This document shows, one piece after another, positions 1 to 26,465 of a stretch of 26,465 nucleotides of DNA. The DNA is from a virus, in IMG/VR virus record IMGVR_UViG_3300042091_000951, positions 1-26,465 of that record; one strand, 5' to 3'. Numbering within the stretch: position 1 is the first letter of the stretch; each line of letters starts with the position of its first letter. The notes below the pieces were generated by a model, which worked only from the letters and a program-made list of their open reading frames with translations, did no database searches and had not been told where the DNA came from. A program made the position numbers and the translations under genes.

Positions 1-156
1 TTAAGACTGGTATTTGCCAACGCCTAAGCAAACGCCAACGCATACTAACGCCAATCGCTTTCAGGGACTTGTTACTGGAGCTCGCACTATGAGTACATAT
101 GCAAGTTCTGTTCGGAATTCAAGTGAGCAGGATGCGAACGCTATCCCGACACGTCC
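1..156. other. No gene recognised; short GCC-rich direct repeats
   Basis: No open frame with a start and ribosome binding site could be supported here on either strand. The only structure is a cluster of short repeats at 16-53: the octamer GCCAACGC occurs twice (16-23 and 34-41) and CGCCAA three times. The phasing of GCC every six bases loosely recalls the large hexanucleotide arrays at the other end of the window, but this copy is short and degenerate. It lies downstream of the last gene of the early operon. Confidence 0.4.
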
Positions 157-453
157 CTATTCTGGATATTCCAAATTCAAATAAAGATCCGACAAGTGCT
201 GCCATTTACTGGCACGCTTGGTATTTTCATAGATCGTCTGGGGTAACTCATTGATATGAGTCACTACTGGCTCGTATTCGACCATAATGCCCATTTGCGC
301 GACGATCTTCTGCCGGTCAGGGTGTAAAGCCCAAAGTTTGTCAATCGCCTCCTTAGGATCACATAGCTCTTGAAATGGGACCCAGCCATTTTCAAATACC
401 ATGATGCAGGTAACCATCGGAGATTTGCCTTGATGAACAAAGTAGACCTTCAT
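157..453 (-). CDS. Hypothetical phage protein, 98 aa
   Basis: I do not recognise this protein. It is soluble, with no signal peptide or membrane segment, and has an acidic, aromatic-rich C-terminus. The chosen start is the ATG at 451-453, whose ATGA overlaps the TGA stop of the ERF gene at 450-452. This implies translational coupling. A longer frame opens 14 codons earlier, but it would lie deeper inside the ERF gene. A GGGAG about 9 bases upstream may serve as ribosome binding site. It is the last gene of the leftward early operon. A role next to the annealing protein, such as a recombination accessory, is guilt by association only. Confidence 0.6.
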   Translation of the reverse strand: MKVYFVHQGKSPMVTCIMVFENGWVPFQELCDPKEAIDKLWALHPDRQKIVAQMGIMVEYEPVVTHINELPQTIYENTKRASKWQHLSDLYLNLEYPE

Positions 454-1157
454 GGTCCAAAAGCTCCCATCGGATTTTGAGAAATATGCTGACAAACAGT
501 GTCGTATTGAGATCGACTCAACATAGAGCTACTTTGAACTCCGAGTTTAATTAAATAGTCTTTCACTGCTGCGTCCGACCAATGCGAAGACTTAGAAATT
601 GCATAAAGGCGTTTCAATTGTGCCTCGCTGGGCTTCCAGCCACCGTCGGTATCTTTCTCTTCGGTTCGGCTAAAATTACCGCCCGATTTGAATCCCGGAT
701 CCCAGAAGTCTCGAGGTTTCTGTTTGGGTTGAATCTCATGAGAGTCATATTCGGTATCTTTCTCTTCTTCAGTCGGGACGCAAAAAATCTGTAAACAACA
801 AATTTTCATTGCCGCACTCATGGCTTTATTAGATGATTTATCTCCAGTATCCATGGCTTCGCCCGGAATAACGGCCTCAAATGAAGACCCATCCTGAGCG
901 TAGAACGTATATTGAACCGTAAGACGAGTATAAATAAGAGTTCCGCCGTTTTTTGATTCCCGTTCTTCGCGGCATGTTTCAAGGACTTTTGGGACGAGAT
1001 AGACCCCGTATTTTACGAAGAGAGGCTGAAGTGCGGCGTACACGTCATCAATCCCTCGAAAGAGATACCCCTTACCTTGCTCGTTTTTTCTGGTTTTCTC
1101 AATTGCTCCGACATCACCCATGATTTTAGTAATGGCAGAATAGATGCCTTTTTCCAT
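450..1157 (-). CDS. erf: ERF-family single-strand annealing recombinase
   Basis: This 235-residue protein matches the ERF superfamily of phage single-strand DNA annealing proteins (P22 Erf type), which pair complementary strands during phage recombination and genome circularisation. Residues about 1-135 carry the family pattern: a helical start, GYLFRGIDDVYAAL (the typical Y.FR..DDV.. stretch), then a beta-rich part ending in GEAMDTGDKSSNKAMSAAMK. Residues about 136-185 form a low-complexity linker, and a small helical C-terminal domain follows. The start is preceded by GAAAGGA. The linker is odd: it contains a segment closely matching the endolysin gene of this same window (see 661-701), and a 17-bp direct repeat (646-662 and 751-767) that encodes EEKDT twice. 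Family call is by motif recognition. Confidence 0.85.
   Translation of the reverse strand: MEKGIYSAITKIMGDVGAIEKTRKNEQGKGYLFRGIDDVYAALQPLFVKYGVYLVPKVLETCREERESKNGGTLIYTRLTVQYTFYAQDGSSFEAVIPGEAMDTGDKSSNKAMSAAMKICCLQIFCVPTEEEKDTEYDSHEIQPKQKPRDFWDPGFKSGGNFSRTEEKDTDGGWKPSEAQLKRLYAISKSSHWSDAAVKDYLIKLGVQSSSMLSRSQYDTVCQHISQNPMGAFGP
661..701 (-). repeat. Endolysin-like segment inside ERF linker
   Basis: This 41-bp stretch of the ERF linker matches 3529-3569 in the endolysin gene at 37 of 41 positions, on the same strand and in the same reading frame. It encodes GFKSGGNFSRT, against GFKWGGNFSRT next to the catalytic histidine of the peptidase. It directly abuts one copy of a 17-bp direct repeat (646-662, second copy 751-767). 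It reads as a fragment copied into the linker. Confidence 0.75.
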
Positions 1158-1170
1158 GTGAGTTTCCTTT

Positions 1171-1266
1171 CTAATTCATCTGGATCAATTGAAAAATTGT
1201 CCAAACCATGAGGCCAGCCAAAAATAGTATCCAACCCACCATGATCATTTTAGCTGTGACGATCAT
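1171..1266 (-). CDS. Small single-span membrane protein, 31 aa
   Basis: A 31-residue frame encodes a protein that is almost entirely one hydrophobic helix (about residues 8-27, with WILFLAGLMVWTIF), preceded by MIVTAK. The ATG overlaps the stop of the upstream 51-aa gene as ATGA. An AAAGGA lies 7 bases upstream, so translation looks coupled and well primed. The ERF gene starts 13 bases after its stop, with its own GAAAGGA. Function unknown. Small phage membrane peptides in early operons can be toxins, inhibitors of host enzymes or exclusion proteins, but nothing here chooses among these. Confidence 0.6.
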   Translation of the reverse strand: MIVTAKMIMVGWILFLAGLMVWTIFQLIQMN

Positions 1267-1418
1267 ATTAAATCCTTTCGATCAATCAATTTTCTCAGAA
1301 GCTCAAAGTATTCAAACCAAGTAATCTTTTTTTGTTCTAAAGCGCGAAGCAGATTCAAAGCCTCAACGTCTTTCGACAGGGATGCTCTTAGATCTTTCGA
1401 TATCTTTTGAGTCTTCAT
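1263..1418 (-). CDS. Hypothetical helical protein, 51 aa
   Basis: This frame encodes 51 residues, mostly charged and helical, with a central KKITWFEYFELL. It is preceded by a perfect AAGGAG seven bases before the ATG, and its stop overlaps the next gene by ATGA. These two signals make it a convincing gene despite its size. It overlaps the 3' end of the upstream 91-aa gene in another frame by 56 bases, which is compact but usual in phage early operons. No signal peptide or membrane segment. Function not recognised. Confidence 0.6.
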   Translation of the reverse strand: MKTQKISKDLRASLSKDVEALNLLRALEQKKITWFEYFELLRKLIDRKDLI

Positions 1419-15700: not shown

Positions 15701-16909
15701 TTAGACAGATCCATCAGAACCCTGGTAAGCGAAACGAGGATCAATGAAATCCGCATTTCCACGTACTGTCAGCTTCCAACGATAAATGTCTCGTTCGAAT
15801 CCTGCACCGGTTTCAGGATTTTCCTGAGTGATCTTTGCAGCTTCGCGCATTTGAACGATGAACCAAGGCTTGCTTGAATCCATGACATACCATGCCGAAG
15901 AGTTCGAGTTCGTCGAACCTGAATTATTGAACATGAAACGACTGATCACTGGATTTGCAATTCCCTGCAATACGTTGATTGCCAAAGATCCACCGACCTG
16001 ACCTGCAGATGCAGCGCCCGACGGATAGAAATTGGAATTCAACAAAGTTGCAAGCGTCCAGCGATAGAATGGACTCACTGCGATGCTATCAGGAGAGACC
16101 GCCATTTTAAGCCCTTGGAGATTCAATTGGTTTTCAAGAGCTGTGAATGCCGATTGCACGTTTCCCTGAGTCAGAGTTCCGAAAGAAGCGGGTTTCGTTG
16201 CGCCGCCGCCTTTTAAACTCGTGCTCCATGGATACACGCTTTCATAACTAGGTTTAGTTTCCGAAGACGGAACTGTCAATTTCGCGTAAGTTGCCCCAGT
16301 AGAAATCGAAGCCAATTTTCCGTAAGCGTACACTTCCCAGAGCTGCGCAGCGTAGTCGGCCATGTCGCCGACTTTCTGAGCAAACTGACCGGTTTGATCA
16401 TCATCAATCAATTCAAAAGACACCGGAAAAAGTTCACCAAACTTTTTATTACGAAGTTTGATGTCCAATCCGATGACCGATGCTTCTGCGTACTTCTCGC
16501 CTTCGCCGACTTCTTCTAAGAAGGTCAACGCATTGAGAGGAGCGTAAAGCTCGGTATCTCGACTTGAAGGGATTACGTGGGTCCATTGTTCGTACGTAGT
16601 CTTCACCGCTGGATAGAGGTTATTGACTGCAGTCTGAACACCGGCACGCAAGAGCTGGGGGTTCGCTGAAGCTGAATTCGATTCTCGCATCAGCTTCTTC
16701 TTGAATTTCGCCCAGCTAAAGTTTGAGTCGATTCCCATGGGCATCGCTTTCGCGTCGCGCATGTCAACCCCAAAACGGCCTTTAATGGATTCCCGAAACT
16801 CTTTCATTTCAGGATTATTCCAGACGGCCCTTTCTTTCATCTTTTGGTTGACCTCAACGCTATTGCGTCGAGACAACTGAGTTCTTCCATTTGTGGCTAC
16901 ATCACTCAT
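15701..16909 (-). CDS. Major capsid protein (Mu gpT-like/HK97 fold)
   Basis: This 402-residue protein is the likely major capsid protein. Residues about 95-200 match the gpT-like pattern: LLRAGVQTAVNNLYPAV, then an aromatic strand with DTELYAPL, EGEKYAEASV, and KKFGELFPVSFELI. That run is typical of Mu-like gpT/HK97-fold subunits. An N-terminal charged region of about 80 residues may be cleaved by the protease as a scaffold-like delta domain, but no cleavage site is evident. It is encoded after protease and decoration protein, and before the connector genes. GAAAG precedes the ATG. A strong hairpin follows its stop. Confidence 0.85.
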   Translation of the reverse strand: MSDVATNGRTQLSRRNSVEVNQKMKERAVWNNPEMKEFRESIKGRFGVDMRDAKAMPMGIDSNFSWAKFKKKLMRESNSASANPQLLRAGVQTAVNNLYPAVKTTYEQWTHVIPSSRDTELYAPLNALTFLEEVGEGEKYAEASVIGLDIKLRNKKFGELFPVSFELIDDDQTGQFAQKVGDMADYAAQLWEVYAYGKLASISTGATYAKLTVPSSETKPSYESVYPWSTSLKGGGATKPASFGTLTQGNVQSAFTALENQLNLQGLKMAVSPDSIAVSPFYRWTLATLLNSNFYPSGAASAGQVGGSLAINVLQGIANPVISRFMFNNSGSTNSNSSAWYVMDSSKPWFIVQMREAAKITQENPETGAGFERDIYRWKLTVRGNADFIDPRFAYQGSDGSV

Positions 16910-16927: not shown

Positions 16928-17473
16928 TTAGAAAATGACCTGAGCACCGGTTCCAAACGGATATCTTGCTCCGATTAGAATATCTCCTGTTTGACCTGCA
17001 ACCGCCGAAGTAACGGGAACAAGACCTACAAAGATACCGACATAATTGTGGTCGCCTGGATCTGTCACGGTGACCGTTTGGGTATTGTCGCCATTCGAAA
17101 GATAGACTTTCGCTCCGATCGTAAAAGAATCGCCCACATGCAGGAGCAATCGAGCAGTGACCCCATATTTCGGTCCAACGAATCCCGGACCTTTCTGAGA
17201 TGCATCCACTGGAGTTAGACCCTGATAAGGACTATTTAATTGACCATTAGTCACGGCATTATCCGCAACGCCCACAAAGGTCACGCCATCACCCGTCGCA
17301 CTGACTGGACGAAGAGTTAAAGCTCCTGTATCAAAGCACATAAGATCGCCTTGATTCCAAGTCGCAGCGGTTGAGCCCACAACTACGGCAGCACGACCGT
17401 CTTCAAAAAGAGATTCTCCTGGCCCACCTCGAACAATGAGGTCATTATTGCCAGATGAAGCTGAAATAGACAT
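16928..17473 (-). CDS. Capsid decoration-like protein
   Basis: This 181-residue beta-rich protein with glycine, threonine and valine lies between the protease/scaffold and the capsid gene, the usual position for a head decoration protein (lambda gpD or DUF2190-like). The stretch LRPVSATGDGVTFVGVADNAV and the ends LLLHVGDSFTIGAKVYLSNGDN and VGIFVGLVPV are typical of small beta-tulip or OB-like decoration proteins that bind capsid threefolds. AAGGAAGG precedes the ATG. The name is by position and composition. Confidence 0.7.
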   Translation of the reverse strand: MSISASSGNNDLIVRGGPGESLFEDGRAAVVVGSTAATWNQGDLMCFDTGALTLRPVSATGDGVTFVGVADNAVTNGQLNSPYQGLTPVDASQKGPGFVGPKYGVTARLLLHVGDSFTIGAKVYLSNGDNTQTVTVTDPGDHNYVGIFVGLVPVTSAVAGQTGDILIGARYPFGTGAQVIF

Positions 17474-19755: not shown

Positions 19756-21600
19756 TTAACTTGCTCCACTTCTGTATTGAGAGGCGACTGCTGTTTTGTC
19801 GGACTTCGTAACCGCCGACGAACTCCCACTATCTGGAGAAGGAGACATAGGACTGGCAGGAGGTTTCGCAGCAGCGGTCGGTGCAGTAAGAGGAGAGATC
19901 AGAACCGGTGAAATCGGTTGTTGGCTTTCCTGATCAATCAAATCCTTTTCGGTTGAGTAATCATACTCATCGATTCCGCCGACTTCCTTCGCCGCAAGAG
20001 GCGCTGCCGTTTGACGAGAGATATATCCGCAATCTTCAGTGAACTTGATATCCTTAAGCTTGGCAGACGAATCTTGACTAATAATCTCAGGAAAGCTGAT
20101 CTTGCACTTCGCACCGGGTACACCCCAGCCGCCGTTATGGAACTTGTCCCAAAGTGCCTGAAGGATTCGACCGATCTCAAGCTGACGTCGCTCGAACTTC
20201 TTAGCAACCGGTTCAGTCCCAACAATAGCAGATGCCTTCGTCTGACCCGCTGATTTCTCAAGCCCGAAGTAAGAAGTCGGGATCTGACTGCCAGCGGCTA
20301 CCATAGAAACGCCCCAGCTCAATGTCTCATCATCGCCATTGCTACGACCTTGATTTGAAAGATATTGACGTGTAATGGCTTTCGTATGAATAAATCGAGA
20401 TCCGGCTGGCTCAAATTCACCTAGGCCTTCTAAAGACGCGGTCAAATTATCGACATCAGTCTGCGATCCTTCAACAGTGATATCCTCAGTCCATGCAGAT
20501 TGTTTTTTAAGCGCAATCAGTTTGTAATTGATGCAATCCCGAATCCATTTGAGGTATCCTAAGACCGGGAATAGATCCGAGCGCCCGCGCTTCTCATTGG
20601 AGACACAGTTGTATTTGAAGTGCATGACGTCACTGGCCGGCAATTGCTGCATGACAAACTTAGAAGTCGGCACCGCTTTGCCGGCCGAGGTCCCTGTGTA
20701 GATTTGGTACTGGGTTGGAAAGACAAGCTGGTAATACAAGACTCTTTTAATATCTTCCGGGAATGTGACAATCTCCCAGACGGTTGAGGGATCTAAGAGC
20801 CGAATCCGGGGAATCAAGCCCTTGGCGGGTTCTTGACCCGGCAGATCCTGATAACCAATAAAAACTTCGTTGTCAGGCAACCACCAGATGAGATTCTCGC
20901 CGTAGATCGATCCCTCGCGGCAGATATCTTCCATCATCTCTTCGAGGCTATTCACCTTTACGAAGGCTTTCCATAGGGCTAGGGCTCGTGGATCTTCACA
21001 ATCAATGCGATAACCGCGGCCAAGCACGAAATCTCTAGTAATGTGTACCACGGCACGAGCAAGAGGATGGTGATGGTACTCATGAAAACAATAAGCATGC
21101 GCACGTAAATAGTCATAGAGATACGGTTGCTTGTTGAATGGCCCCCCGAGAAGAGGCACGAAATCATCGCCGACTAATCCGGCATTACTCCCTGGAATCG
21201 ATCCGGCGAATCCGTCTGATGCGAATGCGTCGCCTTCTTTGATATTGGCTTCACGAAACTTTCTGATGCGACTATTGGACTTCCAGGCTTCTTGGATCGC
21301 ATTCTTATTTCTGAGTTTCTTGTAGCGATAGACGCCGTCCGAGTTCGCCTCTAGGAAGATCCCTTCGGCTTCTATGTCCTTATTTTGCTCAAGGCATTCC
21401 ATGAGCTCTGCCATGGTGTGAACGGATCGAAACTTGGACGGATCGCCCGGTTTAAAGCTGTCATCGTAAAGGTAATCGTCTTCTTTGAAGGTCGCCTCAC
21501 TGGCGATCATTCTGAGCGCTAGCTTGCGTTCATCGAGACCCTGTTCGATTGGAGTAGGGACAACCGGCTTAGTTTTAGCCATTGATTGTGAGTAATCCAC
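19756..21600 (-). CDS. Portal protein
   Basis: This 614-residue protein is the portal: the dodecameric head vertex for DNA entry and tail attachment. Evidence: the conserved region SMVAAGSQIPTSYFGLEK (about residues 435-455) with AGQTKASAIVGTEPVAKKFERR, the crown-to-stem layout, the helix-rich C-terminus with a proline- and alanine-rich disordered tail, and a length within the usual 450-650 range. The first in-frame codon is GTG at 21598-21600, with an ATG six codons later (21580-21582); neither has a strong Shine-Dalgarno. A promoter lies immediately upstream, so a short leader is expected. It starts the main head transcript. Confidence 0.85.
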   Translation of the reverse strand: MDYSQSMAKTKPVVPTPIEQGLDERKLALRMIASEATFKEDDYLYDDSFKPGDPSKFRSVHTMAELMECLEQNKDIEAEGIFLEANSDGVYRYKKLRNKNAIQEAWKSNSRIRKFREANIKEGDAFASDGFAGSIPGSNAGLVGDDFVPLLGGPFNKQPYLYDYLRAHAYCFHEYHHHPLARAVVHITRDFVLGRGYRIDCEDPRALALWKAFVKVNSLEEMMEDICREGSIYGENLIWWLPDNEVFIGYQDLPGQEPAKGLIPRIRLLDPSTVWEIVTFPEDIKRVLYYQLVFPTQYQIYTGTSAGKAVPTSKFVMQQLPASDVMHFKYNCVSNEKRGRSDLFPVLGYLKWIRDCINYKLIALKKQSAWTEDITVEGSQTDVDNLTASLEGLGEFEPAGSRFIHTKAITRQYLSNQGRSNGDDETLSWGVSMVAAGSQIPTSYFGLEKSAGQTKASAIVGTEPVAKKFERRQLEIGRILQALWDKFHNGGWGVPGAKCKISFPEIISQDSSAKLKDIKFTEDCGYISRQTAAPLAAKEVGGIDEYDYSTEKDLIDQESQQPISPVLISPLTAPTAAAKPPASPMSPSPDSGSSSAVTKSDKTAVASQYRSGAS

Positions 21601-21630
21601 AACTCAGTTCAGAAATCATCATCTATTTTG

Positions 21631-21659
21631 ATAATAGTGTGGATTTTTTAACAGTGCAA
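21631..21659 (-). promoter_or_regulatory. Sigma70-like promoter for head operon
   Basis: On the minus strand TTGCAC (21654-21659) and TATTAT (21631-21636) are separated by exactly 17 bases, matching 5 of 6 and 5 of 6 bases or close to it. A start near 21624 would leave about 23 bases before the portal GTG. It lies in the gap after the glycosyltransferase gene and suggests that the portal and all genes to its left are transcribed separately from the MuF/glycosyltransferase pair. Confidence 0.6.
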
Positions 21660-21673
21660 AGATATTTTCTCAC

Positions 21674-21717
21674 GAGGGCTTGAGCGGTTTAAACGTGCGT
21701 TTTTCCTCTCAAGCCTC
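21674..21717. other. Nested inverted repeat at glycosyltransferase stop
   Basis: GGCTTGAG (21677-21684) pairs with CTCAAGCC (21708-21715), and GAG/CTC further out pair with one bulge. An inner AAACG/CGTTT (21691-21702) can form within the loop. The stem covers the glycosyltransferase stop codon and lies just upstream of the head promoter. No U tract follows on the minus strand, so intrinsic termination is doubtful; an RNA stability element or regulator site is equally possible. Confidence 0.45.
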
Positions 21718-22435
21718 AATTCGGATTCAGATTGATTCTCAACCATTCATCAAAATTACCATTAAACGTCCGATTCAAATGAGATTGTTTCCATTTCGAA
21801 TAACTTTCGGGATGCGGGAGCGGACAATGCTTTTCTTTGAAGTCTGCCAAATAGGCGTTCCGCATTCGAAGTCCTTGAGCCTTTCGGAATGCCGGAGCTT
21901 CGATCTGGCCGTACCACCGGTATTCAGCAGCAACGCCGCCTTTGCCGATAAATGACGCACGCCACATAGTGATACTGAACATTTCGGCATGGGGATACGT
22001 TCGGACTTTATGTCCTGCGATTGTAAATTCATTCCAATCCTTCCCACCAATGTTTTCGGGCCATAAAGACAGCGTCGCAATATTCCCATCGACATCCATA
22101 ACGTCTTTCATAGCTTTCAACCAACCTTGAGTAATGGGATAACTATCGGGATCGTACCAAAGAATCAGATCCTGGAGATCAGCATTGAGTTGATGAAAAG
22201 CAAAATTAAATCCACCATGGCCTCCCAGATTCTTCGGAACTGAGATGACTGAGCCATCGACCATGCGAGCTATAGACTTGATGCATTGCGCCGCATTATC
22301 GTGTTCAATCGGCCAAACATTATCGAGCAGTATCCATGTCTTGATCTCAACTTGTCCCATAGTACGGAGAGCTTGCGCAAGACTCATCGCAAGTGTTGCT
22401 GGCTCACAATGGCACACTGTAATGACATGAATCAT
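21716..22435 (-). CDS. Glycosyltransferase-like protein (GT-A fold)
   Basis: This 239-residue protein resembles family 2-type glycosyltransferases: an N-terminal Rossmann-like start (MIHVITVCHCE), NLGGHGGFNFAF (the N-x-G-...-G pattern that holds the nucleotide sugar) near residue 69, and LILWYDPDSYPI around residue 91-100, where DPDS stands in for the DxD metal-binding motif. The C-terminal part has WY..IEAPAF, a common acceptor-side feature. Its ATG overlaps the MuF stop by ATGA, so it is coupled to a head gene. Likely it adds sugar to a virion or host surface component. It is not a standard head gene, so it looks acquired or specialised. Confidence 0.7.
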   Translation of the reverse strand: MIHVITVCHCEPATLAMSLAQALRTMGQVEIKTWILLDNVWPIEHDNAAQCIKSIARMVDGSVISVPKNLGGHGGFNFAFHQLNADLQDLILWYDPDSYPITQGWLKAMKDVMDVDGNIATLSLWPENIGGKDWNEFTIAGHKVRTYPHAEMFSITMWRASFIGKGGVAAEYRWYGQIEAPAFRKAQGLRMRNAYLADFKEKHCPLPHPESYSKWKQSHLNRTFNGNFDEWLRINLNPN

Positions 22436-23556
22436 TCCATATTCCCTTTTTGTTGAAGCCAGTTATCGAATCCTTCGAAGTCAATTTCGGGTTTCTCGCT
22501 AATCATATCCTCGGTCATTGGAGCAGTTCGACAACGACAATGAAAATGGGCAGGCGGGACTTCAGCATCACAATCGCCCATGTCTTCACCATTATCGAGT
22601 TTCTTTCGAATCTCCGTCGAGTTAAGGCCATCTCGAACCATGCAACAATTGTCAGTTTTCGAATCAATGATAGCAATCCATTGATAATCCATGATCCCAT
22701 TCTCTTCAGCCGAGTCCGATTCCCCTTCTCGAACCGATTGAACAAAATCGTCCATCATCTCTTGTTCGAGTTCCCAAGAATAACCTTGGATATAATCGGT
22801 TTGATCATCTTTAGACCAATCCACTGGATAGAAGATCTTATCGTTCGGAGATCTTCCGAATGGCAAATATGCCTGTGTGTAGTCCTCTACAGCCTGATCC
22901 CAAACGTCTGGCTCAATGATTCCGAATGACATCGAAATGCCAGGTTCTTCGTCTTTGGGCTTAGCGGCCTCTTTAATTTGGGCCATTTTGATGCGTTTCG
23001 GGATTCGTGCTTTAGAGGGGAATGCCCGGTCAATCCGATCCATGGTTTCTTGAGCTGGGCTTTCCAAGACTTGAGAAAGTTGAAAGGCATCTACAATGTC
23101 TCGAAGAAGTCGATGGAATGCGAGCTCAACTCGCGCAGCAGTATTTCCACCGCTCGGAGTTTCTCGTTCCATCTCTTCATTGACATCGGATTTCGAAAGA
23201 TTGCCGCGCGTATTCTTGTCTAAAGCCCGTCCAATTGCTTCAGCTTGTCCGGCATAGCTCAAAGTGTAGGTTGTAGTTCGAAGCTGCTTAAAAAGCGAAT
23301 GCGCCTGTTCTATGGCCATTTGAAAGTACGGTTCTAATCGTCTCTGAAAACTATCGCGGTTGAGTTTGGCAAATTGTCGACCATGTTGTTTCGTGCTCAT
23401 ATGAGCCGCGATCTCTTCGGCTCGTTCTTGCAGAACAGTGACAATCTGCGCTAATGCAATTTGATACTTCGCATGAATGGAGTCGAGTGCTATATCGCGG
23501 TCATGAATGAATGCGGAATAAGCTTTAGACTGAGTCAGTGGTTTCTTTTCTGCCAT
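22432..23556 (-). CDS. MuF-like minor head protein
   Basis: This protein of about 374 residues matches the Mu gpF/SPP1 gp7 family of minor head proteins. It is helical through residue about 290. Near the C-terminus it has DSKTDNCCMVRDG (about 298-310) and PPAHFHCRC (about 334-342), the D..t...C...dG...PP.H.nCRC core of the MuF fold. I start at the ATG at 23554-23556; a TTG two codons upstream is also in frame. No clear Shine-Dalgarno is visible, so a leaderless or weak start is possible. It usually follows the portal but here lies upstream of it, divergent from a secreted-protein gene. Confidence 0.8.
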   Translation of the reverse strand: MAEKKPLTQSKAYSAFIHDRDIALDSIHAKYQIALAQIVTVLQERAEEIAAHMSTKQHGRQFAKLNRDSFQRRLEPYFQMAIEQAHSLFKQLRTTTYTLSYAGQAEAIGRALDKNTRGNLSKSDVNEEMERETPSGGNTAARVELAFHRLLRDIVDAFQLSQVLESPAQETMDRIDRAFPSKARIPKRIKMAQIKEAAKPKDEEPGISMSFGIIEPDVWDQAVEDYTQAYLPFGRSPNDKIFYPVDWSKDDQTDYIQGYSWELEQEMMDDFVQSVREGESDSAEENGIMDYQWIAIIDSKTDNCCMVRDGLNSTEIRKKLDNGEDMGDCDAEVPPAHFHCRCRTAPMTEDMISEKPEIDFEGFDNWLQQKGNME

Positions 23557-23576
23557 TTCCAATTCATAGTAGAGTC

Positions 23577-24695
23577 ATGCATTTAATAAAATCAATTCTT
23601 CTTTTGGGTCTCTTTTTTAATCCGAGCTTATCATGGACTCAGACTCAGATCATCTCCCACGATACAAATTATCCGCAATGGTATGACTACGAAGCTTTCG
23701 GTGGGACACCTGCGATTTATCCTAAGTTCAAGATCGTCTGGGGTGTGGATGGCTCAACCGTCGATGCGACCGCTGCGAATCCCTTTCCGATTACCTGCAT
23801 CTCGGGATGCTCTGGCAGCGGTGGTGGGACCGTTAATCAAGGAACTCAAGGAAGCTCGGCATCACCTTGGTTCGTTGTAGATCAATCGGTCTTGGCTGAA
23901 CTTGAAGTTATTAATACAATTTTGGGATCGCCATTCCAAGCAGGCGGAACGATTGGGAATACGGCATTCGGTGCAACTCAATCGGGAGTATGGACGGTAA
24001 CGGCCGTTCAACCTACCGCATCTCTCTTTAATGGAACGGTTGTAACGACGAGCGGCGCAACGATTGCCAAAGATTCAAGTCTATCGACCATTAATTCAAC
24101 TTTGGGTTCACCGATGCAAACAACTGGCGGAATAGTTACCGCTAATCAGGGAACTCCAGGACCCTTAGCGAGTCCATGGCCAGTGACTTTAGTTGATGGT
24201 CAGAAAAATACCTACATCGCATCTTACGAAGACTTGGTCCCGGGAACGCTCGCTACAGACATTGCTATCTTAAATGGAAGCGCCACAAAAATAGTTCGTG
24301 TCATTAATGTCACAATTTCTGGTACGCGCACTACGTCTGGATCGATACCTATGGCTTTAGTCAAACGATCGACCCCAGATTCAGGCGGGACTTGTATTCA
24401 TATGGTCACAATGGCTAATGATGGATTAGATCCAGCCGCTACAGCCGTTGCTCAAGGATGCAGTTCTAATCCGACTTTAGGAGTGCTCGTTGGATATCCT
24501 AAGATCTGGGACTTAACATTGAATCCTGGGACGACAACAGATAATGTGGCACTTTACAGTTTCAATTTTGGAGCGCTTCCGGGTGAGCAATCGATTGTGC
24601 TTCGGGGTGTAAACGATGGTCTATCAATTTATATGTGGGGATTTACAGTCGCAGGTGCTGCTTTCAATGTCTCTTATTCTTGGACGGAAGAATAA
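23577..24695 (+). CDS. Secreted protein with phage virion-type repeats
   Basis: Starting at the ATG at 23577-23579, this 372-residue protein has a Sec signal peptide (MHLIKSILLLGLFFNPSLSW; cleavage probably just after). The mature part contains two related units, with LGSPFQAGG and LGSPMQTTGG, and two copies of NQGT-G-[SP]-x-ASPW-[FP]-V (VNQGTQGSSASPWFVV and ANQGTPGPLASPWPV). This motif is common in phage virion and tail-fibre-like proteins, where it forms short beta repeats. A signal peptide on such a protein is unusual. It is divergent from the MuF gene with 20 bases between start codons. The second gene starts one base after its stop. Confidence 0.7.
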   Translation: MHLIKSILLLGLFFNPSLSWTQTQIISHDTNYPQWYDYEAFGGTPAIYPKFKIVWGVDGSTVDATAANPFPITCISGCSGSGGGTVNQGTQGSSASPWFVVDQSVLAELEVINTILGSPFQAGGTIGNTAFGATQSGVWTVTAVQPTASLFNGTVVTTSGATIAKDSSLSTINSTLGSPMQTTGGIVTANQGTPGPLASPWPVTLVDGQKNTYIASYEDLVPGTLATDIAILNGSATKIVRVINVTISGTRTTSGSIPMALVKRSTPDSGGTCIHMVTMANDGLDPAATAVAQGCSSNPTLGVLVGYPKIWDLTLNPGTTTDNVALYSFNFGALPGEQSIVLRGVNDGLSIYMWGFTVAGAAFNVSYSWTEE

Positions 24696-24696
24696 T

Positions 24697-25110
24697 ATGA
24701 AACTTTTAGCCGGTTTTTTGATTTTATTGTGTACGAACGCTTTGGCAATTCCAGGAATCCCTATTTCTAATGGTCCCATTACGAATCCTGGAACGAATGC
24801 CGTTATGGCAACGATGGTTCTTCCTGCTTCGGGAAGTATTGCAAGTCCGCCAAGCGCGAATTATTTTATTACTGGATATTGGACATGTACTGTAGCCGCT
24901 CTTTATGAGTATCAAACCTTGAACGCATCAGCCGTTGTTCAAACCGCAATTCTTTTACCTTGTGTGGCTAACGCGTCGAATCCTCAATTGACGACTAATC
25001 CGATCTCGTTTTCAGTTCAGGATGGATACACGATTCGAGTGATCAATCTAAATAGCTATACCGGAACTGGACAAGTGACCCTTTTTTACGGAATTGAGAC
25101 CTTGAATTAG
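24697..25110 (+). CDS. Small secreted protein, 137 aa
   Basis: I start at the ATG at 24697-24699 (MKLLAGFLILLCTNALA), which gives a classic Sec signal peptide with cleavage after ALA. GGAAG lies 9 bases upstream, one base separates it from the upstream stop. The mature part of about 120 residues is beta-rich, with two cysteines (WTCTVA and LPCVA) that could form a disulfide. No known family is recognised. It is clearly co-transcribed with the preceding secreted protein, suggesting a joint role at the cell surface or periplasm. Its stop overlaps the start of a hexanucleotide array by a few bases. Confidence 0.65.
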   Translation: MKLLAGFLILLCTNALAIPGIPISNGPITNPGTNAVMATMVLPASGSIASPPSANYFITGYWTCTVAALYEYQTLNASAVVQTAILLPCVANASNPQLTTNPISFSVQDGYTIRVINLNSYTGTGQVTLFYGIETLN

Positions 25111-25403
25111 CCAGATCCATAGCCAGAGCCACAGCCATCGCCAGAGCCAAGGCCATCGCCTTTTCCATCGCCATCGCCAGAGCCAGCGCAATAGCCAGCG
25201 CCATAGCCATAGCCACAGCCACAGCCACCGCCACCGCCAGAGCCATCGCCTTTTCCATCGCCATCGCCAGAGCCAAGGCCATCGCCTTTTCCATAGGCAT
25301 CGCCAGAGCCATCGCCATAGCCAGAGCCATAGCCAGAGCCATAGCCATCGCCATCGCCATAGCCATCGCCATCGCCAGAGCCATAGCCTTTTCCATCAAT
25401 CAT
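25107..25403 (-). CDS. Poly(Gly-X) repeat protein encoded by hexamer array
   Basis: Read on the minus strand, the array gives 98 residues in a strict Gly-X pattern, where X is mainly D, Y or S and sometimes K, A, L or C (for example GKGYGSGDGDGYGDGDGY). The ATG at 25401-25403 overlaps the upstream gene stop by ATGA. The frame ends with TAA (25107-25109) exactly at the array edge, opposite the end of the plus-strand secreted-protein gene. Weak Shine-Dalgarno. The other two minus frames are open too, so the translated frame is uncertain. A disordered or glycine-helix protein is possible, or the repeat may be untranslated. Confidence 0.4.
   Translation of the reverse strand: MIDGKGYGSGDGDGYGDGDGYGSGYGSGYGDGSGDAYGKGDGLGSGDGDGKGDGSGGGGGCGCGYGYGAGYCAGSGDGDGKGDGLGSGDGCGSGYGSG
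25111..25396. repeat. Hexanucleotide repeat array, copy 1
   Basis: About 47 imperfect hexamers of the form GCC-ATC, GCC-ATA or GCC-AGA, with interspersed GCC-TTT-TCC units, lie between the 137-aa gene stop and the 146-aa gene stop. A longer block of about 34 bases (GCCATCGCCTTTTCCATCGC and onward) recurs within it near 25150 and 25245, showing slippage and larger duplications. A second array lies at 26331-26465. Confidence 0.8.
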
Positions 25404-25840
25404 TCCCATTCAAGAATAGCAATTAGTTTCGCCCCCCACTCAGGAAAATATTTCTTGATTTTATCGACTGACATTGGAGATCCATCGAGGCCAGCTCTTT
25501 TTAAAGCAATTTCGCATCCAGTCTTACATGCGCCCGTCAAAGTACGAAATTCTTGAAGAGTAATTTTTCTACTTTCCCCGGCGTTTTGAATCTCTTGTTT
25601 AACTGCGTCTAAAGAAGGCCTACGCTTTTCATCCTTCCAAATAGCATCAGCAATTGCTTCGGCCAACGTGTTCCCATGAGCACAGTAATGACTCCCTGCG
25701 AGGGTAACAAAAAAACGTTTTTTGTTACCCTCAACTTTGTAAGATTCAACTCGATGTCCTTCTCTAGTTGAAGAAACAATTACAGGACCGTCTGTTACTT
25801 CTTCAAGTCCATCTCTGTAGATAACTTGACTCATAATCAT
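25400..25840 (-). CDS. Hypothetical protein, 146 aa
   Basis: This soluble protein of 144-146 residues starts at ATG 25838-25840 or at the second ATG two codons on (MSQVIYRDG). AAGGA lies 3 or 9 bases upstream respectively. Residues 25-75 form a small alpha/beta unit (VESYKVEGNKKRFFVTLAGSHYCAHGNTLAEAIADAI). A C-terminal region (FRTLTGACKTGCEIALKRAG) has two cysteines, with charged helices. Function not recognised. The gene holds a perfect 14-bp inverted repeat (25701-25731). Its stop overlaps the start of the Gly-X frame. Confidence 0.6.
   Translation of the reverse strand: MIMSQVIYRDGLEEVTDGPVIVSSTREGHRVESYKVEGNKKRFFVTLAGSHYCAHGNTLAEAIADAIWKDEKRRPSLDAVKQEIQNAGESRKITLQEFRTLTGACKTGCEIALKRAGLDGSPMSVDKIKKYFPEWGAKLIAILEWE
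25701..25731. repeat. Perfect 14-bp inverted repeat inside a gene
   Basis: AGGGTAACAAAAAA (25701-25714) and its exact complement (25718-25731) flank a 3-base centre ACG. This hairpin-like element, with A and T tracts, resembles an intrinsic terminator on either strand, yet it lies in the coding part of the 146-aa gene (encoding EGNKKRFFVTLAG). Confidence 0.7.
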
Positions 25841-25890
25841 TTTTCCTTAGAGCATACCTCTTCAAGCGACGCGTAAGCATCATTTGTCAT
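25837..25890 (-). CDS. Possible 17-aa peptide or readthrough tail
   Basis: ATG at 25888-25890 opens a frame of 17 residues (MTNDAYASLEEVCSKEK) that ends with a TGA overlapping the next gene's start. It lies in the same frame as the upstream 77-aa gene, so readthrough of that gene's TAA would add 25 residues (NPSGLEIAEMTND...). No good Shine-Dalgarno is seen. It may be a small coupling peptide, a decayed C-terminus or noncoding. Confidence 0.3.
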   Translation of the reverse strand: MTNDAYASLEEVCSKEK

Positions 25891-25917
25891 TTCTGCGATC
25901 TCAAGGCCACTTGGATT

Positions 25918-26151
25918 TTAAATCGCTACAGATTTAAGTTTAGCTCCAATTTGGTGATCTGCTTTTGGCTTTAAACCATTCGCCGCTACATCACTGATAG
26001 ATCCCGATTTATCGCGCGTGAAAACGCGCCAAAGTCGGAATGCATCCCTGAGTTCAATTGCCGAAACACCAGGCGTATGGGCTGTTACAATACCCGCATG
26101 AACTCCTGCTACATTCGCGCGAACGATTACCTTCTTACCAATCATACTCAT
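25918..26151 (-). CDS. DUF6948-like small phage protein, 77 aa
   Basis: Starting at the ATG at 26149-26151 (preceded by AAAGGAG), this protein reads MSMIGKKVIVRANVAGVHAG, then ELRDAFRLWRVFT, SISDVAANGLKP. The sequence of VIVR-x-AGVHAG, an R-L-W core and a final A-x-x-G motif resembles the small phage DUF6948 family, whose role is unknown. A frame starting 13 residues earlier lacks a ribosome binding site. It is followed by a possible 17-aa peptide. Confidence 0.65.
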   Translation of the reverse strand: MSMIGKKVIVRANVAGVHAGIVTAHTPGVSAIELRDAFRLWRVFTRDKSGSISDVAANGLKPKADHQIGAKLKSVAI

Positions 26152-26170
26152 TTTACTCTCCTTTTTTTCA

Positions 26171-26257
26171 TTATTGTTTCTTACAACCAAATCCGTCTTT
26201 GCAGAAGATCAGGGTTGCATCATAATAAACCTGCACATTTTTAAATTCTTCGCCCAT
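26171..26257 (-). CDS. Possible 28-aa peptide
   Basis: A 28-residue frame (MGEEFKNVQVYYDATLIFCKDGFGCKKQ) lies 19 bases upstream of the DUF6948-like gene. It has two cysteines, six residues apart. An AAG-CGAAG stretch lies before the ATG, not a strong ribosome binding site. Upstream in-frame TAA closes the frame. Could be a real small gene, but size and weak signals keep confidence low. Confidence 0.35.
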   Translation of the reverse strand: MGEEFKNVQVYYDATLIFCKDGFGCKKQ

Positions 26258-26306
26258 CTTCGCTTACGACAATACAAACAATAAAATAGCGATCGATTGG
26301 AGTTCT

Positions 26307-26465
<159 letters not shown>

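What the first reader, a model, noticed from the sequence alone, without database searches (positions are those of the whole stretch)
21716..22435. Glycosyltransferase coupled to a MuF head gene
A GT-A-type glycosyltransferase (GG..N..F and DPDS motifs) shares an ATGA junction with the MuF-like minor head gene and lies just upstream of the portal promoter. Co-translation with a virion gene suggests it modifies a virion protein, as glycosyltransferases do in some phages, rather than the host surface. It is not among the standard head genes.
Basis: partly seen in the sequence, partly recalled or inferred. Interest (0 to 1): 0.65.

Follow-up and report, generated by a model that had tools for sequence, protein, structure and literature searches.

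The report
Phage glycosyltransferase in head-gene operon
An uncultivated bacterial virus carries a real sugar-transfer enzyme inside its head-building genes, with a second sugar-transfer enzyme elsewhere in the same genome, most likely to decorate its own particles with sugars, as some mycobacterium viruses do; the sugar target itself is not proven.

Summary
Window 21716-22435 (-) encodes a 239-aa protein whose start codon overlaps the MuF-like gene's stop (ATGA). It matches Pfam GT2 only below the cut-off, but a six-sequence AlphaFold model (pLDDT 89, pTM 0.88) is a clear soluble GT-A glycosyltransferase, nearest to polypeptide GalNAc-transferases and a GT2 mannosyltransferase. Asp38, the DxD pair Asp95/Asp97 and Glu179 are invariant in all six sequences. 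The "portal promoter" is at chance level.

The inference needs changing. ATGA overlaps are routine in this virus, and related phages have MuF and portal adjacent with no such gene, so coupling to MuF specifically is not supported. The family is mobile, mostly within the packaging/head region: upstream of terminase, between terminase and portal, or between portal and MuF inside a glycan-gene cassette. An overlapping record of the same virus shows a second glycosyltransferase (GT4, phrog_7162) and a PhyH dioxygenase upstream of terminase. All four contigs found with the GT-A query also carry that GT4.

Best reading: a two-enzyme glycan system expressed with late genes, probably modifying virion proteins, analogous to (not homologous with) Corndog-cluster phages. 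DNA or host-surface glycosylation is less likely but not excluded.

The parts
21716..22435 (-). GT-A-fold glycosyltransferase, 239 aa, soluble; no PHROG and no Pfam match above cut-off
22432..23562 (-). MuF/SPP1 gp7-like minor head protein gene, immediately upstream, 4-bp ATGA overlap
19756..21582 (-). portal protein gene; likely start is the ATG at 21582 (the listed GTG at 21600 is upstream of it)
   Evidence: start judged by comparison with L004
21583..21715 (-). 133-nt intergenic region between the glycosyltransferase and the portal; holds an 8-bp inverted repeat GGCTTGAG...CTCAAGCC; no promoter signal above chance
15701..16909 (-). major capsid protein (Mu gpT-like), downstream in the same late gene run; a candidate acceptor
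16928..17473 (-). head decoration-like protein, a candidate acceptor

Best explanation
The gene encodes a soluble, probably metal-dependent GT-A glycosyltransferase. It is one of at least two glycosyltransferases of this virus; the second is a GT4-type enzyme (phrog_7162) encoded next to a PhyH dioxygenase upstream of the terminase genes. Both lie in runs with the packaging/head genes, so they probably act late. They most likely transfer sugars from host nucleotide-sugar pools, one after the other, onto one or more of the virus's own structural proteins, giving glycosylated virions. Shown: gene position, predicted fold, conserved candidate catalytic residues, co-occurrence with GT4. Inferred: late expression, two-step order, virion protein as acceptor. 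Unknown: the sugar, the residue and the acceptor. MuF is not singled out as the acceptor.
For: GT-A fold, pLDDT 89, VIA Z 18.5 to GalNAc-T2 and 18.4 to PcManGT. D38, DxD and E179 invariant in six relatives. No transmembrane segment. GT4 and PhyH in the same virus: record G001 overlaps the window at both ends at 99.9%. All four contigs recovered by the GT-A query carry the GT4, against 1 of 37 arbitrary viral contigs. GT4 lies within 4 kb of TerL in 8 of 15 records of at least 15 kb, 3.4 expected, p about 0.007. L038 has portal-GT4-methyltransferase-GT2-unknown-GT-A-epimerase-MuF. Firecracker and Catdawg have portal-OMT-three glycosyltransferases-protease-capsid with 4-bp overlaps; for such cluster O phages capsid and tail-tube modification is reported (PMC11600133). 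No Tet_JBP or thymidylate-synthase-type homologue in the records.
Against: No acceptor, sugar or virion is known. Some GT4 relatives lie beside replication genes (Phapecoctavirus) where DNA could be the target. In L048 the GT-A is about 6 kb from GT4, on the other strand, next to small early-type genes and not in the head module. The Corndog-cluster glycosyltransferases are not detectable sequence relatives. The terminase linkage is only moderately above chance. Co-occurrence rests on four contigs, two of them from related phages, and the GT4 profile was built from three of those four.
Confidence: 0.55

Rival explanations
1. DNA glycosylation: the two glycosyltransferases put sugars on modified bases of the phage genome to resist restriction, as in T4-like or TET-associated phages.
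For: GT4 relatives in Phapecoctavirus sit next to primase and DNA polymerase genes. Viral glycosyltransferases are known to hypermodify DNA (Pyle 2024, cited in PMC12619734). A PhyH-type 2OG-Fe(II) dioxygenase accompanies GT4 here, and 2OG oxygenases and DNA methylases occur near some GT4 genes.
Against: No Tet_JBP and no thymidylate-synthase-type base hydroxymethylase in the virus or the five relatives. The GT-A matched no Pfam family other than Glycos_transf_2, so no DNA glucosyltransferase family. The only DNA methylase match in the virus is a 106-aa fragment.
Confidence: 0.17
2. Host surface modification: the enzyme alters LPS or wall polysaccharide to exclude superinfection or convert serotype.
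For: Nearest folds include TarP/TarS and other bacterial wall or capsule glycosyltransferases, and serotype-converting phages are well known (own knowledge).
Against: No transmembrane segment in either glycosyltransferase. No Gtr flippase-type partner and no integrase matched in the gene inventory. Location inside the packaging/head genes.
Confidence: 0.13
3. A passenger gene ('moron') with no important role for the phage particle; its place after MuF is only where it landed.
For: Absent between MuF and portal in relatives; variable position among phages; rare (no match in 50,697 phage records).
Against: Candidate catalytic residues are kept in six divergent relatives; the partner GT4 is maintained with it; open frame with G+C equal to the rest of the phage.
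Confidence: 0.1

Closest known systems
Corndog-cluster (cluster O) mycobacteriophage virion-modification genes (O-methyltransferase and three glycosyltransferases between portal and capsid protease)
   Same: Glycosyltransferases in the head operon beside the portal gene, chained by 4-bp overlaps, next to other modifying enzymes
   Different: No detectable sequence relation between the glycosyltransferases. Here one GT-A lies between MuF and portal, while the second glycosyltransferase (GT4) and a PhyH dioxygenase lie upstream of terminase; modification is not shown here
Polypeptide GalNAc-transferases (GT27) and GT2-like enzymes such as PcManGT, WrtF, TarP and SpsA
   Same: GT-A fold over about residues 1-225, Z 16-18.5, DxD motif
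   Different: 10-14% identity; short single domain; sequence family not in PHROGs and below the Pfam GT2 cut-off
Streptomyces phage Zuko glycosyltransferase gene 5 (with an annotated UDP-glucose dehydrogenase next to it)
   Same: Relative of the partner GT4, just upstream of terminase and portal
   Different: No GT-A of the present family found in annotated phages; only 25% identity to the GT4

Membership tests
GT-A fold glycosyltransferases | Rossmann-like GT-A fold with nucleotide-sugar site | tested here: met
   AlphaFold model pLDDT 89; VIA Z 18.5/18.4 to GalNAc-T2 and PcManGT; the pocket itself was not docked
GT-A fold glycosyltransferases | DxD metal motif and a conserved acidic catalytic-base candidate | tested here: met
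   D38, D95, D97 and E179 invariant in six sequences
Pfam Glycos_transf_2 (PF00535) | score over the curated cut-off | tested here: not met
   19.2 bits against a cut-off of 23.3, E 0.0012
Corndog-type virion glycosylation systems | glycosyltransferase gene inside the head operon next to the portal | tested here: met
Corndog-type virion glycosylation systems | glycosyltransferases homologous to the Corndog-cluster ones | tested here: not met
   hmmsearch, blastp and hhalign without significant match to Firecracker/Catdawg gp34-36
Corndog-type virion glycosylation systems | glycan on capsid or tail protein | not testable with these tools
   needs purified virions
DNA-hypermodifying glycosyltransferase systems | base-hydroxylating partner (Tet_JBP or dCMP/dUMP hydroxymethylase) | tested here: not met
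   no match in the window record, the overlapping record or five relatives; the relatives are partial records
Serotype-conversion GtrAB-type systems | membrane-anchored glycosyltransferase with flippase partner | tested here: not met
   no hydrophobic segment (maximum 19-residue hydropathy 1.25) and no such partner in the Pfam inventory

The most novel reading that the evidence does not exclude
The PhyH dioxygenase, GT4 and GT-A form one pathway in which a virion protein side chain is first hydroxylated and then glycosylated in two steps: a phage counterpart of hydroxylation-dependent glycosylation known from giant viruses (own knowledge).
Probability: 0.07. Interest if true: 0.65.

Novelty: new member of a known kind. 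Interest (0 to 1): 0.4.

Why it matters
Glycosylated phage particles are reported mainly for mycobacteriophages, and recently. A separate glycosyltransferase family, paired with a GT4 and placed in packaging/head modules of uncultivated phages with quite different portals, suggests that virion glycosylation arose several times and may be commoner than thought. It also gives named gene pairs for testing.

Tried and rejected
Searches of annotated phage genomes with GT-A family members found nothing, and two scans of bacterial genomes with the GT-A query gave none. PDB sequence searches gave only chance matches. The first structure job with two sequences failed (pLDDT 44). PHROGs has no family for the GT-A. 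Rejected: MuF as specific acceptor, because MuF relatives occur without the glycosyltransferase and the glycosyltransferase occurs away from MuF. Rejected: the portal promoter, because sites are at chance level. L025:3919-4695 joined only after iteration (E 3e-6), looks like a general GT2 and was left out. The primary virion-glycosylation paper (Freeman 2023) is not held; it is known here only through PMC11600133, PMC11256854 and PMC12619734. A search for phage PhyH plus glycosyltransferase plus terminase found no phage paper. Corndog's own record was not found in the collection, so Firecracker and Catdawg were used.

Full report
Observation. The 239-aa ORF at 21716-22435 (-) starts inside the stop codon of the 376-aa ORF at 22432-23562 (-) (ATGA). 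The larger ORF is a MuF/SPP1 gp7-like minor head protein and the next gene downstream is a portal. Further downstream are a protease-like protein, a decoration-like protein and a Mu gpT-like capsid protein. The glycosyltransferase scores 19.2 bits against Pfam GT2 (cut-off 23.3) and hits no PHROG.

Fold. With two sequences the model failed. With six relatives (A5) it reached pLDDT 89.4 and pTM 0.88. Foldseek and VIA place it among GT-A enzymes: GalNAc-T2 Z 18.5, PcManGT Z 18.4, also WrtF, TarP, TarS and SpsA. D38, D95, D97, Y175, G176 and E179 are invariant in all six; assigning D38 to nucleotide binding, D95/D97 to metal and E179 to the catalytic base follows from general GT-A knowledge and is inferred. 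There is no membrane segment.

The rest of the virus. The record IMGVR_UViG_3300014162_000016 (G001) matches the window at 99.98% across 5.7 kb at one end (as far as that record was fetched) and at 99.93% across 1.4 kb at the other. The two records therefore probably represent one circular or circularly permuted genome of about 35.4 kb, and about 9 kb missing from the window can be read in G001. That stretch encodes a DnaB-like helicase, RusA, a PhyH dioxygenase (Pfam E 1.5e-14), a 336-aa GT4 overlapping it by ATGA (phrog_7162 E 1e-28), then small and large terminase. ERF lies in the overlap. No integrase, base hydroxymethylase or Tet_JBP was found.

Relatives of the head genes. Portal relatives (62-73% identical) occur in L004-L009. 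Where the junction is readable, MuF and portal are adjacent without a glycosyltransferase: L005 gap 9 bp, L007 and L008 overlapping, L006 a 0.27-kb stretch without a long ORF. L007's 39-kb record holds neither GT-A nor GT4. L006's record begins inside a GT4 gene. So the glycosyltransferase is an accessory gene at this point.

Relatives of the glycosyltransferase. L005: GT-A and GT4 overlap by 4 bp directly upstream of the terminase genes, in a phage with related portal, capsid and terminase. L012: GT4, terminases, then GT-A between large terminase and a Mu-type portal. L045: GT4, GT-A, phosphoesterase, terminase, portal-like protein. L038: SPP1-type portal, GT4 (4-bp overlap), methyltransferase, GT2, unknown protein, GT-A, epimerase, MuF with an ADP-ribosyltransferase-like match, then a capsid E protein. 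L048: GT-A and GT4 about 6 kb apart on opposite strands. L038 and L045 are distant members (20-22% identity; HMM E 1e-14 and 1e-24) and were found in loci chosen for GT4, so they do not count toward co-occurrence.

Co-occurrence and linkage. The four contigs found by a GT-A scan all have GT4; 1 of 37 arbitrary viral contigs does (Fisher p 5e-5). Contigs are of unequal length, two of the four are related phages, and the GT4 profile was built from three of the four, so the value is indicative only. Among 40 GT4 records, 25 have a detectable large terminase. In the 15 of at least 15 kb, 8 have GT4 within 4 kb of it, 3.4 expected, p 0.007. Genes close to GT4 include methyltransferases, other glycosyltransferases, epimerases and 2OG oxygenases.

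Interpretation. The pattern resembles the Corndog cluster, where an O-methyltransferase and three glycosyltransferases lie between portal and protease (PMC4351075), and where capsid and tail-tube modification is reported (PMC11600133). The enzymes are not detectable sequence relatives, so this is similarity of arrangement. DNA as target is the main rival: some GT4 relatives lie by replication genes, but the base-modifying enzymes needed for the known routes were not found.

Noticed in passing
window 1-1372 and 20795-26465: Both ends of the window overlap another IMG/VR record (G001) at 99.9% or more, so the virus is probably circular or circularly permuted, about 35.4 kb.
   Followed up: partly
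window 25108-25388 and 26334-26465: Degenerate 6/12/18-bp tandem repeats (AGCCAG/GCCATA type); a similar-looking low-complexity stretch lies near the GT-A of L059.
   Followed up: no
window 23538-24695 and 24616-25110 (+): Two ORFs on the opposite strand to the head genes with signal-peptide-like starts; the first shares short segments with an 880-aa ORF upstream of MuF in L007.
   Followed up: no
L014:7971-8291: 106-aa N6/N4 DNA methylase fragment upstream of the small terminase gene, lacking most of the domain.
   Followed up: no
L038:7213-9042: MuF-type head protein that also matches a PHROG annotated as Bxa ADP-ribosyl transferase, downstream of the glycan cassette.
   Followed up: no
window 21583-21715: Long gap before the portal with an inverted repeat and predicted hairpins; most other gaps in this late gene run are under 30 bp.
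   Followed up: no
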